DNA from: Corynebacterium sp. HMSC04H06
Lineage (GTDB): Bacteria > Actinomycetota > Actinomycetes > Mycobacteriales > Mycobacteriaceae
Assembly (NCBI RefSeq): GCF_001815935.1
Contig: NZ_KV823414.1
Span: 18,388 to 82,387 of the forward strand
Direction of reading: 5' to 3'
DNA: 64,000 nt
The translations under genes were made by a program, and so were the position numbers. This document shows, piece after piece, positions 29,347 to 36,924 of this stretch; position 1 is the stretch's first letter; each line of letters begins with the position of its first letter. The notes under the pieces are model-generated. The model had not been told where the DNA came from. It worked only from the letters and a program-made list of their open reading frames with translations, and did not search any database.

Positions 29347-30627
29347 GTGAGTGACAAGAAGAAGCAGTTTAAGCCCCTGTCCGCCCCGAAGGGGGTGCCG
29401 GACTACCTGCCGCCGGAGTCCGCCACCTTCTACAAGGTCCGCCAGACCATGGTCGAGCAGGCCCATCTGGCCGGTTTCCAGCACATTGAGCTGCCCGTCT
29501 TCGAAGACACCTCACTGTTCGCCCGCGGCGTGGGCGAGTCGACCGATGTGGTCTCCAAGGAGATGTACACGTTTGCCGATCGCGGCGATCGCTCTGTGAC
29601 CCTGCGCCCGGAGGGCACCGCCGGCGTGATGCGCTCGGTGATCCAGCACAACCTGGACCGCGGCCAGCTGCCGGTCAAGCTGAATTACTACGGCCCCTTC
29701 TTCCGCTACGAGCGCCCGCAGGCCGGACGCTACCGCCAGCTGCAGCAGGTCGGCGTTGAAGCCATCGGCGTGGACGACCCGGCCCTGGACGCCGAGGTCA
29801 TCGCCCTGGCAGACCGCTCCTACCGCGCGCTGGGGCTCAGCAGCTTTCGGCTGGAACTGACCAGCCTGGGCGATCACACCTGCCGCCCGCAGTACCGCGA
29901 CAAGCTGCAGGAATTCCTCTTCAAGCTGGATCTGGACGAAGAGACCCGCCACCGCGCGCAGATCAACCCGCTGCGTGTGTTGGACGACAAGCGCCCGGAG
30001 ATCCAGGAAGCCACCGCGGATGCGCCGCTCATGTTGGACTACCTGAGCAACGAGTGCCGCGAGCACTTCGAGACCGTTACGGGTTTGCTCGAGGACATGG
30101 AGGTCCCGTACACCATCAACCCGCGGATGGTGCGCGGCCTCGACTACTACACCAAGACCACCTTCGAGTTCGTGCACGACGGCCTGGGTGCCCAGTCCGG
30201 CATCGGTGGCGGCGGCCGCTACGACGGGCTGATGGCCCAGCTGGGCGGCCAGGACCTCTCCGGTATCGGCTACGGCCTGGGCGTGGACCGTGCGGTGCTG
30301 GCACTCGAGGCCGAAGGTATTACCCTCGAGGGCACTGAGCGCCGCGTCGACGTCTACGGTGTGGCGCTGGGGGCCGAGGCCAAGCAGAAGATGGCGCGGC
30401 TGATCAACGATCTGCGGGCCCGGGGCATTTCCGCCGACATGGCCTATGGTGACCGCGGCCTGAAGGGCGCTATGAAGGGCGCGGACCGCGCCGGCGCCCG
30501 CCTGGCCTTGGTGCTGGGTGAGAACGAGCTTGCCGCAGGCACGGTGGCGGTCAAGGACCTGGCTGCCCACGAGCAGCAGGAGGTCTCGCTGGACCAGGTC
30601 GTCGAGACCATCGCTAGTCGGGTTTAA
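29347..30627 (+). CDS. hisS: Histidyl-tRNA synthetase
   Basis: A 426-aa class II synthetase. Motif 1 region begins [11 protein letters not shown] (about 14-24), motif 2 is [14 protein letters not shown] (about 118-131), the His-binding LVRGLDYY-type loop appears as [11 protein letters not shown] (about 260-270), and motif 3 has [10 protein letters not shown] (about 306-315). The anticodon-binding domain is C-terminal. GTG 29347 lies 6 bp after the preceding stop and has no obvious ribosome-binding site, so coupling to the upstream gene is likely. The 3' end overlaps the TetR pseudogene on the other strand by 14 bp. Confidence 0.97.
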
Positions 30628-31090
30628 TCCCGACCCGGATGCCGGCGAGGTAGATGCGGATCATCGCGTTGTCGAGCTCGTTTTCTACCTCGCCCAAACT
30701 CACCTCGCGGGGGCGCTGAAGCGCCAATAGTCCGACGGTGAATTCTAGGTGCGTGACCCCGGGGCCAACTTGTCCCAGGGCGCGCGCCTTTTCTATGAAG
30801 CGGGCTCCGTTATCCATCAGCTCGTTTTGTAGGGCTTTTTGCTCGGGGGAAGGGATTCCAGGTTGGCCGGTAGGAAGCTGGGGATGAGGACGCCCAGGCC
30901 CAGGGGGAGGAGCTCGCGGGCGTAGGCGCACACGGTCTCCCCGGCGTTTTCGGGGTCAGTATCCAAGCGCTCGAGGAGCATGTTCTGGGTATCGATGAAG
31001 CGCTGGGCATAAGCGCTCACGCATTCGTCGATGAGCGCCTGCCGATCGGGGAAGTTGCGGTAGAGCGTGGCGATCCCGACGCCGCCGGGG
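30614..31090 (-). pseudogene. TetR family regulator, N-terminally truncated and frameshifted
   Basis: Reading leftward from about 31090, the frame gives GGVGIATLYRNFPDRQAL, the second half of a TetR helix-turn-helix, then ligand-domain helices. At the G run 30845-30849 (CCCCC on this strand) the frame shifts: the first frame stops at 30817, while continued TetR-like sequence (EQKALQNELMDNGARF) runs in another frame to the stop at 30614. The first helix and start codon are missing; the sequence upstream of GGVG is unrelated. The gene cannot make a working repressor. It probably once controlled the adjacent YhgE-like exporter, now also a remnant. Confidence 0.8.
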
Positions 31091-31298
31091 CAGAGCTTCC
31101 CCGCATGCTGTTTTCCGACATCGCCTATGCAGGAACCCCGGAAATTGATGGCCTGGAGCGCCTCGTGCCAGTGCGGGCCGTGGTGCGCGAGCAGCTGGCC
31201 TGGACCAGCCCGTGGTACCGTCTCACGCCGCGCAAGATTTTGTCCGACGAGCGCGTCCAGGACGCCTTTAACGCGCTGGAAATCGAGCTCGACGAGGA
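31081..31298 (+). pseudogene. Unidentified gene fragment in the decayed TetR/YhgE locus
   Basis: An open plus-strand stretch, with an ATG at 31105, encodes about 70 residues such as SDIAYAGTPEIDGLERLV and WTSPWYRLTPRKILSDERV. The composition looks like a genuine soluble protein but I do not recognise the family. It abuts the broken TetR at 31085-31090 and runs out of frame into the YhgE remnant near 31300, so it appears to be an internal piece of a third gene trapped by deletion or recombination. Confidence 0.5.
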
Positions 31299-31538
31299 GG
31301 CCTGCCGGAGACCCAGCCGGCCTTTCTCCAGTGGTTCCACAATTACGACCCAATGACGTACTCGACGAACCTCCTGCGGCAGATGATCTTCCACTACGAC
31401 GCTGCCGATCCGCGCCTGCAGCAGGCCATCGGGGTCCTAGCAGCAATCTGGGTCATCTTCATGGCCATCGCCGTGGTGGGCGCCTGGCGCGGGCGCCACA
31501 TCGCCATGAAGGACCTGCTCCCGGAGGTGGCCGTCTAG
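31299..31538 (+). pseudogene. C-terminal remnant of a YhgE/Pip-type membrane protein
   Basis: About 79 residues in a frame without a good start: LPETQPAFLQWFHNYDPMTY, then NLLRQMIFHYD, one transmembrane helix (GVLAAIWVIFMAIAVVGAW) and a short tail to the stop at 31538. This matches the last part of YhgE/Pip ABC-2-like exporters (conserved PMTY...LR segment and final helix). Full-length relatives have several hundred residues, so only the tail is left. Such genes are often next to a TetR repressor, consistent with the neighbour. Confidence 0.65.
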
Positions 31539-33096: not shown

Positions 33097-33918
33097 TTAC
33101 TTCTCTGGGTCCTCCGTGTCCAGCTCGCTAGTCGCGGCGTTCGGGCTGACGTCGACAAACCCGGTAGCGTCGCGCACGCCCGCGCCCGGTTCGGGGGTAG
33201 TCCCGGCGCCGGGAACGGTCTCGGTGTCGGAGTTGCCGTCACCGCCGAGGAGCTCGCTCATGGGCGTGAAGTCGTCCTCGTAGTCGATGCCATTGCGGCG
33301 GTTCGGTGCCGAACGCGTCACCGCGGGGGAGGCGGACAGGCCACTCACCCGGTCGGTCGGCGTGACGATGAGATCGGCGAGCTGCTCGGCGGCCTGGCTT
33401 ATGCGGTTGGGGCTCAGTCCCCCGTGGCCGGCCTCGTCGCCGGCCGGGGCCGCGCCGTAGTCCTCCGTGGCGCGGTAGATGCCCGTGGGGACCACTACGG
33501 CGTGCAGGTAGTTCATCAGGGGCCGCAGGGCGTAGTCAAGGATGAGCGCGTGGCGCGAGGAGCCGCCGGTGGCGGCAATCAGCGTGGGCATGCCGGTGAT
33601 TGCCTGCGGGTCCAGGGTGTCGAAGAACATCTTGAACAGCCCGGAGTAGCTGCCTTGGAAGACCGGAGTGACCGCGATGAGCGCGCTGGCGGAGCTGAGC
33701 AACCGGCGGGCATCGTCCAGCGCCGGGGTCGCCGCGCCCCAGTTGGTCATGGCGTTGGTCAGGTCCTGGGCCAAGTTGCGGACTTCAATGAACTCGAGGT
33801 TGAGGCCCTCCCCGCGGGCGGTGACGCGGGATTCGGTGGCCGCGGCGAGCTCCTCGCCCAGCTGGCGGGTAGTAGAGGGAGTGGACAGGCCGGCGGTCAC
33901 GACCACGAGGGTGTGCAC
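33097..33918 (-). CDS. NAD(P)H-dependent FMN reductase of an LLM two-component pair (CE1759-like)
   Basis: A 273-aa flavodoxin-fold reductase. The core (about 1-190) has the N-terminal strand HTLVVVTAGLSTPSTTR, TPVFQGSYSGLFKMFFD (about 83-99) and AATGGSSRHAL (about 113-123), matching the FMN reductases partnered with the neighbouring LLM monooxygenase in corynebacteria. The last roughly 80 residues are Asp/Glu/Pro/Gly/Ser-rich and look disordered, unusual for this fold. ATG 33918 has AAGGAGG upstream. It follows the monooxygenase gene by 48 bp and would supply it with reduced FMN. Confidence 0.87.
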   Translation of the reverse strand: MHTLVVVTAGLSTPSTTRQLGEELAAATESRVTARGEGLNLEFIEVRNLAQDLTNAMTNWGAATPALDDARRLLSSASALIAVTPVFQGSYSGLFKMFFDTLDPQAITGMPTLIAATGGSSRHALILDYALRPLMNYLHAVVVPTGIYRATEDYGAAPAGDEAGHGGLSPNRISQAAEQLADLIVTPTDRVSGLSASPAVTRSAPNRRNGIDYEDDFTPMSELLGGDGNSDTETVPGAGTTPEPGAGVRDATGFVDVSPNAATSELDTEDPEK

Positions 33919-33966
33919 GGTAAAAACCTCCTTGGGTGGGTATACGGGCCGGGGACAGGGCAGGGG

Positions 33967-35079
33967 CTAGCTTTCCTCGCCGGGGTTGACGCGAAAGTGC
34001 GGCGAATCCGGGGTGTTGCGCAGGCTGGCGTGGGTCGGCGGATCAGAGGGGACGTGATCCGGGCGGCGCTTTTCGAAGCGGCGGCGCAGCTCCGGCACGA
34101 CCTGGGTGCCCAGGCGCTCAATCTGGTCCAGGACCACTTCCTGGGGCAGGCCGGCGTGGTCGATGAGGAAGAGCTGGCGCTGGTAGTCGCCCACCCAGTC
34201 GGCGAACTGCATGGTGCGCTCGATGACCTGCTCGGCGGTGCCGACGGTCAGCGGGGTCATCTCCGTGAAATCCTCCAGCGACGGGCCGTGGCCGTAGACC
34301 GGGGCGTTGTCGAAGTAGGGGCGGAAGAAGTCCTTGGCCTCCTGCTCCGTGTCTGCGATGAAGACCTGGCCGCCCAGGCCCACGATGGCCTGGTCTTCCT
34401 GCCCGTGGCCATACTTGGCGTAGCGGCGGCGGTACATGTTCACCATCTTGGCGGTGTGTTCCTTGTTCCAGAAGATGTTGTTGTGGAAGAAGCCGTCGCC
34501 GTAGTAGGCGGCCTGCTCCGCAATCTGTGGCGAGCGAATAGAGCCATGCCACACGAACGGCGGGACCCCATCCAGCGGGGCCGGCGTGGAGGTAAAGGCC
34601 TGCAGCGGGGTACGGAACTTGCCTTGCCAGTTGACGGAAGGCTCGCGCCACAGGCGGCGCAGCAGGTGGTAGTTCTCCACGGCCAGCGGGATGCCTTGGC
34701 GGATGTCCTTGCCGAACCACGGGTAGACCGGGCCGGTGTTGCCGCGGCCCATCATTAGATCTACGCGCCCGCCGGACAGGTGTTGCAGGAAGGCGTAGTC
34801 CTCGGCAATCTTGACCGGGTCGTTGGTGGTGATAAGCGTGGTCGAGGTCGACAGCTGTAGGCGCTCGGTCTGCGCGGCGATATAGGCCAGGTGCGTCGTG
34901 GGTGAGGACGGGACGAACGGTGGGTTGTGGTGCTCGCCGGTGGCGAAGACGTCGAGGCCGACCTCCTCTGCCTTGAGTGCGATCTCCGTCATGTTGCGGA
35001 TGCGCTCCGCCTCCGTGGGGGTGGTGCCGTTGGTCGGGTCAGTGGTCACGTCGCCAATGGTGAAGATGCCGAATTGCAT
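33967..35079 (-). CDS. LLM-class flavin-dependent monooxygenase (CE1758-like)
   Basis: A 370-aa bacterial-luciferase-like TIM-barrel monooxygenase. It opens MQFGIFTIGDVT, contains VFATGEHHNPPFVPSSP (about 53-69) and RVDLMMGRGNTGPVYPW (about 113-129), typical of LLM enzymes that take FMNH2 from a separate reductase, here the next gene. Substrate unknown. ATG 35079 has AAAGGA upstream on the minus strand. An upstream AT-rich element (35100-35122) includes TTGACA and a TGAC-AC-GTCA near-palindrome. Confidence 0.88.
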   Translation of the reverse strand: MQFGIFTIGDVTTDPTNGTTPTEAERIRNMTEIALKAEEVGLDVFATGEHHNPPFVPSSPTTHLAYIAAQTERLQLSTSTTLITTNDPVKIAEDYAFLQHLSGGRVDLMMGRGNTGPVYPWFGKDIRQGIPLAVENYHLLRRLWREPSVNWQGKFRTPLQAFTSTPAPLDGVPPFVWHGSIRSPQIAEQAAYYGDGFFHNNIFWNKEHTAKMVNMYRRRYAKYGHGQEDQAIVGLGGQVFIADTEQEAKDFFRPYFDNAPVYGHGPSLEDFTEMTPLTVGTAEQVIERTMQFADWVGDYQRQLFLIDHAGLPQEVVLDQIERLGTQVVPELRRRFEKRRPDHVPSDPPTHASLRNTPDSPHFRVNPGEES

Positions 35080-35138
35080 GGTGGGGATCCTTTCTCGATC
35101 AACTATATATGACGTGTCAACAAAAGCTCGAGGGGAAT

Positions 35139-35875
35139 TTATTCCCAAGCCACGGCCTCTAGCAAAACCCCCACGTCGGCCTGGGTAATCACGCGGATCG
35201 GGCGCTGGGATTTCTCGCCGGTCTCGGTGATAATCAGCGCGAAGGGCAGGGAGCCATCACGCGCCGGGAGGTCAAGGCGTCGATAGCCGCCTGTGCGCCT
35301 ACCGTCTTGGGCAGGAATACCGCTCGGTCGGTGTTTTCCGCCCGCTCCAGCACGTCGGCCACCGTGCGGGCATCGATGGTCTGGTTGTCGCCCAAGTCAG
35401 CCGCGACCCAGTGCGCGATGGTGTTGGTAGTCAGCAGCTGTAGGAAGGTGCCGGAGTCGTAGACGGGCAACTGCGAAAACCCGTGGGTGCGGATAAGTTC
35501 CAACGCGGAGAGCACCGAGTCCGCGGGCGTTACCGTCTCCACTTTCTGGTCGCCTAGCCGCGCCACCGCGCCGGGTGGGTCCATCAGCAAGTCCCGCAGC
35601 CGCTCAATATGCTCGATGACCCGGGGGTTCGCCTCCGCAATAGGCGCGCCGTCGTGGTAGCGGCCGTGGGAGATGGCGTTGCGCAGGCTCGTGTAGTCGT
35701 GTAGGGCCTCGGCCTGCTGGGAGTTGAGCAAGTGCTCGTGCCGGGCGGAGTCGATAAGCCGCCGGAAAGAGTCCAGGTCGCGCGCCTGCAGACGGGCTCG
35801 AAGGTGTTGCTCGATGTCGTTGAAAGCGGCAATAAAGCGGTGGGCGCCGTGGCCGGACTGCTTGTCAGAAGTCAT
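35139..35875 (-). pseudogene. CBS-domain protein with a frameshift near the 3' end
   Basis: From ATG 35875 the frame encodes 213 residues: a helical N-terminal half (about 1-95, with DYTSLRNAISHGRYHDG) and a CBS-like half (VTPADSVLSALELIRTHGFSQLPVYD). It then hits a stop at 35234. In another frame the sequence continues as GSLPFALIITETGEKSQRP and VITQADVGVLLEAV to a stop at 35139, the expected last strand and helix of the second CBS motif. The shift lies at about 35256-35264. A sequencing error, a recent mutation or recoding are all possible. The promoter TACACT ends 6 bp before the ATG, giving a leaderless mRNA. Confidence 0.75.
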
Positions 35876-35881
35876 GGCCCC

Positions 35882-35887
35882 AGTGTA
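35882..35887 (-). promoter_or_regulatory. -10 element of a leaderless promoter for the CBS gene
   Basis: TACACT on the minus strand (plus AGTGTA 35882-35887) lies six bases before ATG 35875. Three GTAGTT repeats starting at 35928, 35939 and 35951 lie upstream, behind the -35 position. Confidence 0.5.
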
Positions 35888-35927
35888 GAGGCCGGCCCTG
35901 CCTGCGACGGGGAGTCGTTCGCGCACA

Positions 35928-35956
35928 GTAGTTCCAGCGTAGTTCCAACTGTAGTT
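35928..35956. repeat. Three short GTAGTT direct repeats
   Basis: GTAGTTCCAGC, GTAGTTCCAAC and GTAGTTGGGG start at 35928, 35939 and 35951, spaced 11 and 12 bp (about one helical turn). Placed upstream of the CBS gene promoter, they could be an activator array. Also 13 bp from the ypfJ-side terminator. Confidence 0.4.
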
Positions 35957-35968
35957 GGGGCGGATAGA

Positions 35969-36005
35969 CTTAAGCCCCGGTGCGGTATCCCGCCCGGGGC
36001 TTAAG
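35969..36005 (-). terminator. Terminator of the YpfJ-type metallopeptidase gene
   Basis: A perfect 12-bp stem CTTAAGCCCCGG (35969-35980) / CCGGGGCTTAAG (35994-36005) with a 13-nt loop, 26 bp beyond the stop at 36031. Confidence 0.8.
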
Positions 36006-36030
36006 TGGGATAGTTAGCGAAGATGTGGGC

Positions 36031-36924
36031 TTATTTGTAGGCGCCACGGCCCAGGGTGTCGCAGGACTTCATGGAGCCGGACTGGTAGCCGGCCAGGAAG
36101 GACTCCTGGCGCTGCTCGGAGGTGCCGTGGGTAAAGGAGTCCGGATCGACCTGCCCGCCGGAGCGGGACTGGATGTTGTCGTCGCCGACCGCGCGGGCGG
36201 TCTCGATAGCCTCAGCGACCTGCTCCTTGGTGATGGGCTCGAGGAGGGCGTCCTCGCCCTTGTCCGCGTGAGAGGCCCAGATTCCCGCGTAGCAGTCGGC
36301 CTGCAGCTCAATCTTGACCGCGTTGGAATCCTCGCCCGGGTCGTCGTAATTCGACAGGCCGAGGGTGCCCTCGAGGTTCTGGATGTGGTGGCCGAACTCG
36401 TGGGCCACGATGTACATCTGCGCCAGCGGGGCGGAGGAGCCGCCGAAGCTCTCCAGCTGCTGGAAGAAGGAGGTGTCGAAATAGGCGGTGTTATCCGCCG
36501 GGCAGTAGAACGGGCCGGTGGCGGCAGAGGCCGCGCCGCAGCCCGACTGGGTGGTCTGCTCGAAGACCACGCGCTCCGGCTCGGTGTAGTCAATGCCGGC
36601 CTGCTCCGGCAGTACCTCGCTCCACACCCGGTCCAGGGACACGCCGGTGAAGTCCACGCGGCAGTCGTCGTACTTGTTGCCGTCCTCCGGGGTCTGGCAG
36701 TGCTCCAACTCGCTGCCGGCCTCCGGCCCGGAACCGGACTGGCTAGCCGGCTCCTCGGAGCCGAGCAGCCCGCCCAGCTGCCCCGGGCTGCCGCCCAGCA
36801 ACAGGTACAGACCAATGAGGACCACGGTGCCGAGGCCGCCGCCCGCCGCTACGACACCGCCGCGCCCGCCACCGCCGGTACGCGCCCGTTTCCCACTAAT
36901 GTCACCGCCACTGCGAAAAGTCAT
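36031..36924 (-). CDS. YpfJ-family neutral zinc metallopeptidase, membrane anchored
   Basis: A 297-aa protein of the putative zinc peptidase family YpfJ. It begins MTFRSGGDISGKRARTGG, has one transmembrane helix (about 30-46), a short Ser/Gly/Glu linker and an extracytoplasmic domain with the metal motif HEFGHHIQN (about 174-182) plus a downstream ELQADCYAG (about 210) supplying the third ligand. Four Cys outside the membrane may form disulfides. Substrates of this family are unknown. Monocistronic, divergent from aspS, with a strong terminator. Confidence 0.88.
   Translation of the reverse strand: MTFRSGGDISGKRARTGGGGRGGVVAAGGGLGTVVLIGLYLLLGGSPGQLGGLLGSEEPASQSGSGPEAGSELEHCQTPEDGNKYDDCRVDFTGVSLDRVWSEVLPEQAGIDYTEPERVVFEQTTQSGCGAASAATGPFYCPADNTAYFDTSFFQQLESFGGSSAPLAQMYIVAHEFGHHIQNLEGTLGLSNYDDPGEDSNAVKIELQADCYAGIWASHADKGEDALLEPITKEQVAEAIETARAVGDDNIQSRSGGQVDPDSFTHGTSEQRQESFLAGYQSGSMKSCDTLGRGAYK

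What the first reader, a model, noticed from the sequence alone, without database searches (positions are those of the whole stretch)
35139..35875. CBS-domain gene split by a frameshift just before its last motif
The frame from ATG 35875 stops at 35234 after ALTSRRVMAPCPSR, while the missing end of the CBS fold (GSLPFALIITETGEKSQRP ... VITQADVGVLLEAV) runs on in another frame to a stop at 35139. The break is at about 35256-35264 in a GC-rich stretch. Because the tail is still clean protein sequence, the event is recent, a sequencing error, or recoding.
Basis: seen in the sequence. Interest (0 to 1): 0.6.

Follow-up and report, generated by a model that had tools for sequence, protein, structure and literature searches.

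The report
Recently frame-broken HEPN-like–CBS gene
A gene for a probable nucleotide-sensing RNA-cutting protein is broken near its end by a one-base length change; close relatives carry it whole, so this looks like ordinary recent gene breakage or a sequencing slip, not a hidden way of reading the gene.

Summary
The minus-strand frame from ATG 35875 stops at 35236-35234, and the missing end continues in the -1 frame to 35139. Two close relatives (93% and 91% DNA identity) encode the protein in one frame of 245 codons, and 29 of 29 further genus loci pass the break in one frame. Recoding is unlikely: relatives need no shift, and there is no slippery heptamer. A real mutation is somewhat favoured over a sequencing slip, but no reads are available. 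In about 346 kb compared, the window's genome shows three clean breaks plus one in a decayed gene; relative G162 shows one. The gene matches in 139 of 242 genus genomes, and six of those copies look broken. Interest is low for the break and moderate for the family.

The parts
35139..35875 (-). whole HEPN-like + CBS gene, split over two frames
35234..35875 (-). frame-0 part: 213 codons and stop; the last 10 or so codons are out of frame relative to relatives
35582..35875 (-). N-terminal HEPN-like domain (residues 1-98)
   Evidence: Pfam HepT-like below its cut-off; model of an orthologue's domain resembles HEPN chains
35666..35683 (-). RNAISH motif (R65 to H70), the R-x4-H signature of HEPN ribonucleases (signature recalled)
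   Evidence: R65, N66, A67, I68 and H70 kept in at least 95% of 40 sequences
35408..35548 (-). first CBS repeat (residues 110-156)
   Evidence: Pfam CBS 24.6 bits against cut-off 24
35263..35270 (-). place of the frame break: one base shorter than both close relatives in a short run
35139..35264 (-). separated tail: end of the second CBS repeat (two strands and the closing helix) and the natural stop
   Evidence: secondary structure of the orthologue model

Best explanation
The gene encodes a HEPN-like ribonuclease domain followed by a CBS pair. By inference the CBS pair senses an adenine-type ligand and gates RNA cleavage. In this genome the copy has very recently lost one base, net, near codon 203; translation then ends about ten codons later, without the last two strands and the closing helix of the second CBS repeat. 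Shown: the frame break in the sequence, intact single-frame copies in relatives, the domain layout and motif conservation. Inferred: that the break is a real mutation in the organism, that the truncated protein cannot form a normal CBS pair and is lost or inactive, and the biochemical activity itself.
For: Single-frame copies in the two closest relatives and in 29 of 29 further loci. The tail is hardly decayed: codons changed only in the window's lineage are 1 replacement and 3 silent among 42 tail codons, against 7 and 22 among 202 head codons, so the break is young. On the 92-kb contig only this gene and one decayed gene show third-position substitution patterns on both sides of an uncompensated shift among the 20 gene rows with such indels that were rechecked. 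Five other genus copies also look broken, at other places, as expected for a dispensable gene.
Against: No reads and no second isolate: an isolated consensus error in a GC-rich run would look identical, and a tail this clean is also what an error would give. In about 346 kb the window's genome has three clean breaks, each a length change in a short repeat of one or two bases, against one in G162; that leans somewhat towards error, though numbers are too small to decide. The tail carries one further replacement (S to A) that the count leaves out.
Confidence: 0.55

Rival explanations
1. Sequencing or assembly error: the gene is whole in the organism and the draft consensus is one base short.
For: Draft of 72 contigs; the difference lies in a short same-base run in GC-rich DNA; the tail shows little decay; two other clean breaks in the same genome are also length changes in short repeats. 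Frameshift artefacts of older platforms are described for another Corynebacterium (passages of PMC10836205).
Against: Four broken genes in about 346 kb, one of them truly decayed, is not a visibly poor assembly; G162 has one clean break too. The sequencing platform is not known to me.
Confidence: 0.35
2. A stable, functional shortened protein: HEPN-like domain and first CBS repeat are retained and the cell uses the truncated form.
For: HEPN-like domain, motif and first CBS repeat are untouched.
Against: None of 29 loci ends there; the second CBS repeat would lose two strands and its closing helix.
Confidence: 0.05
3. Programmed -1 frameshifting that joins the two frames.
For: The tail frame is open and conserved; both frames are open together over 160 bases, 35396-35236.
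Against: Relatives have one frame and need no shift; no in-frame X-XXY-YYZ heptamer and no run of 5 or more in that interval.
Confidence: 0.02

Closest known systems
HEPN-CBS fusions noted in the HEPN superfamily survey (PMC3710099, passages seen)
   Same: HEPN domain joined to CBS domains; that paper suggests ligand-controlled RNA stability
   Different: Corynebacterium is not named in that main text (0 occurrences); whether this exact family was included is not known to me
DS-11 anti-phage protein, NCBIfam NF053863 (PMC13092281, passages seen)
   Same: One protein with CBS and HEPN domains; in that paper changes in either domain abolished defence
   Different: Intact orthologue L031 scores 20.5 bits against a cut-off of 260, matching over part of the CBS region only; an LLM monooxygenase gene lies beside it in 61 of 65 loci; no phage test exists here
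HepT-type HEPN toxins (MNT-HEPN toxin-antitoxin)
   Same: The modelled N-terminal domain resembles HEPN/HepT chains and bears R-x4-H
   Different: Below the Pfam cut-off and the NCBIfam HepT cut-off (about 20.7 against 60); in the window the flanking genes are a YpfJ-type peptidase and an LLM monooxygenase, not an MNT partner; fused to CBS instead

Membership tests
CBS pair (Bateman module) | CBS sequence signature above the Pfam cut-off | tested here: met
   24.6 bits against 24 in the window; 25.9 to 41.7 in five orthologues; only the first repeat is found by Pfam
CBS pair (Bateman module) | Two repeats forming the known fold | tested here: met
   For the intact orthologue model only (mean pLDDT 79.7): residues 99-241 on 2rc3_A, Z 13.4, rmsd 3.0, 126 aligned. 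The window's frame-0 protein lacks the end of the second repeat
CBS pair (Bateman module) | Binding of an adenine-type ligand | not testable with these tools
   No binding data
HEPN superfamily | R-x4-6-H motif (recalled) | tested here: met
   R65 and H70 kept in at least 95% of 40 sequences; invariant in 8 of 8 of alignment A1
HEPN superfamily | Helical-bundle fold | tested here: inconclusive
   Best rows 1wwp_A Z 10.3 (rmsd 3.2, 94 aligned) and 8xeh_D HEPN-MNT Z 8.9 (rmsd 3.9, 95 aligned); 10 of the first 17 rows name HEPN or HpeT. Foldseek gave 0 matches at E 0.001 or better, and helical bundles can reach such Z by chance
HEPN superfamily | Ribonuclease activity | not testable with these tools
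   Needs an assay
Pfam HepT-like (PF01934) | Gathering score 23.5 | tested here: not met
   18.3 bits in the window; 17.0, 18.1, 18.8 and 23.3 in four orthologues, no match in the fifth
DS-11 anti-phage protein (NF053863) | NCBIfam cut-off 260 bits | tested here: not met
   20.5, 14.4 and 17.8 bits for L031, L002 and the window protein
DS-11 anti-phage protein (NF053863) | Protection against phage | not testable with these tools
   Needs a phage assay
Programmed -1 frameshift gene | Slippery heptamer in the interval open in both frames | tested here: not met
   None in frame, and no run of 5 or more inside 35396-35236
Programmed -1 frameshift gene | Two-frame layout kept in relatives | tested here: not met
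   Single frame in both close relatives and in 29 of 29 loci
Recently frame-broken gene (pseudogene) | Intact single-frame copies in close relatives | tested here: met
Recently frame-broken gene (pseudogene) | Break present in the organism's own DNA | not testable with these tools
   No reads available

The most novel reading that the evidence does not exclude
The family is a nucleotide-gated ribonuclease of Corynebacterium and a related genus that acts as a costly growth-arrest or anti-phage switch, works like DS-11 without being a member of that family, and is repeatedly discarded by frame-breaking mutations; the window catches one such loss very early.
Probability: 0.15. Interest if true: 0.5.

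Novelty: new member of a known kind. Interest (0 to 1): 0.2.

Why it matters
By itself a one-base break in one draft genome is ordinary. The useful part is the gene: a HEPN-like plus CBS protein matched in 139 of 242 genus genomes, beside the same monooxygenase gene in 61 of 65 loci, with six copies that look broken in different ways. That makes it a testable candidate for ligand-controlled RNA cleavage.

Tried and rejected
Recoding was examined and rejected for lack of a slip site or a conserved two-frame layout. A natural short form was rejected because 29 of 29 loci run on. An indel-ridden assembly was tested by comparing contigs C23, C15 and C19 of the window's genome (about 346 kb) with relative G162, in both directions (30 split rows, 29 distinct frames, in one direction; 14 in the other). 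My script's SHADOW/CANDIDATE labels proved unreliable: they hid a real break. I therefore rechecked every flagged frame by codon-position pattern on both sides: 4 of 29 pass in the window's genome (this gene; the decayed TetR-like remnant; an ABC-transporter-like gene; an HsdR-like gene on C15) and 1 of 14 in G162 (an fdhD-like gene). The remaining frames do not pass; short ones with few substitutions cannot be judged. The plasmid search gave two matches, both to the neighbouring monooxygenase gene. PADLOC gave nothing for the window protein or L031 and one weak match (E 0.022, a CARF-HEPN model) for L002. Foldseek on the N-terminal model gave no match at E 0.001 or better. Four of the five structure models of the whole orthologue had a lower mean pLDDT (62 to 66.5) than the one kept (79.7). 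Paper searches: 'HEPN' with 'CBS domain' (5 papers, 5 listed); 'Corynebacterium', 'CBS domain', 'frameshift' (1); 'HepT' with 'CBS domain' (30, 8 listed); 'Corynebacterium' with 'HEPN' (28, 10 listed). The listings showed no study of this gene; of three papers (PMC3710099, PMC13092281, PMC10836205) I saw passages only. Three rows flagged with a stop (G020, G071, G168) have no stop inside the aligned gene.

Full report
What is there. On the minus strand the frame from ATG 35875 runs 213 codons to a stop at 35236-35234, and a tail of 41 codons runs in the -1 frame to a stop ending at 35139. With the intact protein of close relative G162 as query, the window's genome gives two adjoining pieces, residues 1-204 (95% identity, E 1.2e-125) and 200-245 (89%, E 1.6e-19), in different frames.

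Where the break lies. A DNA search of 242 genus genomes found two close relatives, G162 (93%) and G222 (91%). Both relatives encode the protein in one frame of 245 codons.

Orthologues. One search matched 79 of 151 genus genomes and gave loci for the best 30, the window's own among them. The other 29 all pass the break in one frame; 28 of 29 keep the usual ending, and L021 (G012) departs only in its last residues. These are the best-scoring matches, not a random draw; the wider table is used below.

Recoding. Both frames are open together for 160 bases (35396-35236). That interval holds no in-frame X-XXY-YYZ heptamer and no run of five or more equal bases, and relatives need no shift. Programmed frameshifting is very unlikely.

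Mutation or error. By comparison with both relatives, codons changed only in the window's lineage are 1 replacement and 3 silent among 42 tail codons (stop included), against 7 and 22 among 202 head codons; over 25 ungapped background genes they are 153 and 791 among 8609. One further tail replacement (S to A) is not counted because the relatives use different codons there. The tail is thus hardly decayed: the break is young or artificial. To see whether the assembly is rich in breaks I compared the 92-kb contig with G162 and G222 (rechecked) and then contigs C15, C19 and C23, about 346 kb, with G162 in both directions (rechecked). Asking for third-position substitution patterns on both sides of the shift, 4 of 29 flagged frames pass in the window's genome: this gene, an already decayed TetR-like gene, an ABC-transporter-like gene and an HsdR-like gene. 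In G162 1 of 14 passes, an fdhD-like gene. Names other than the first come from reading the translations. The three clean breaks in the window's genome are all length changes in short repeats of one or two bases, which fits error and natural slippage alike. Three against one does not decide. Frameshift artefacts of SOLiD and Ion Torrent data are described for another Corynebacterium in passages of PMC10836205; the platform used here is unknown to me.

What the protein is. Pfam finds one CBS repeat above its cut-off (24.6 against 24) and a HepT-like match below its cut-off (18.3 against 23.5). Five orthologues behave alike, except that L002 has no HepT-like match. In 40 aligned sequences, which include repeated genomes and two broken copies, R65, N66, A67, I68 and H70 are kept in at least 95%; R-x4-H is the signature of HEPN ribonucleases (recalled). 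A model of the intact orthologue L031 (mean pLDDT 79.7, pTM 0.59) matches CBS pairs over residues 99-241 at Z 13.4, rmsd 3.0, 126 aligned (2rc3_A). A separate model of residues 1-100 (mean pLDDT 83.5) has HEPN-type chains among its best second-look rows (8xeh_D, Z 8.9, rmsd 3.9, 95 aligned; 10 of the first 17 rows name HEPN or HpeT), although Foldseek alone gave no match at E 0.001 or better. I read it as a HEPN-like domain on a CBS pair. In the window the protein would end before or at the strands 213-217 and 228-231 and the helix 232-244 of the orthologue model.

How it probably works. Inferred: the CBS pair binds an adenine-type ligand and controls RNA cleavage by the HEPN-like domain. Passages of PMC3710099 note HEPN-CBS fusions and suggest this logic. 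Passages of PMC13092281 report DS-11, a one-protein system with CBS and HEPN domains whose anti-phage effect was lost on changing either. The present family is not DS-11 by NCBIfam score (20.5 against 260); it may work like DS-11 without being a member.

Spread and loss. The gene matches in 139 of 242 genus genomes. I inspected eight flagged copies, of which three were sound; the others are judged from the table alone. These too are single assemblies, so some may be errors. In a draw of 301 family genomes 20 match: 14 along most of the length (9 of this genus, the window's included, and 5 of one other genus, g27) and 6 weakly in part. An LLM-type monooxygenase gene lies just downstream on the same strand in 61 of 65 loci, many of them repeated genomes.

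Verdict. An ordinary, recent one-base frame break, or possibly a sequencing slip, in a HEPN-like plus CBS gene that deserves more attention than the break itself.

Noticed in passing
window 30617-31087 (minus strand) and the junctions at 31079-31316: Remnant of a TetR-like regulator gene that is whole (192 aa) in both close relatives: one base short near 30843 and its 5' end missing; G162 has about 2.5 kb more around the junctions, including a large membrane-protein-like frame (names from reading the translations).
   Followed up: partly
G000 contig C15, about 131606 (outside the window): An ABC-transporter-like gene is frame-broken by two extra bases while G162 has it whole.
   Followed up: partly
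G000 contig C15, about 123076 (outside the window): An HsdR-like gene (1040-aa frame in G162), downstream of an HsdS-like frame, is frame-broken near codon 57 by a length change in a short run (names from reading).
   Followed up: partly
G162, facing G000 C19:84193-85032: An fdhD-like gene is whole in the window's genome and frame-broken in the relative (name from reading).
   Followed up: no
G136:C3:178645-179307: A second, distant copy (29% identity) of the HEPN-like plus CBS gene in one genome.
   Followed up: no
window 33097-36924 (minus strand): Neighbourhood: YpfJ-type zinc peptidase, this gene, a CE1758-family LLM monooxygenase and a flavin-reductase-like gene (name from reading).
   Followed up: partly
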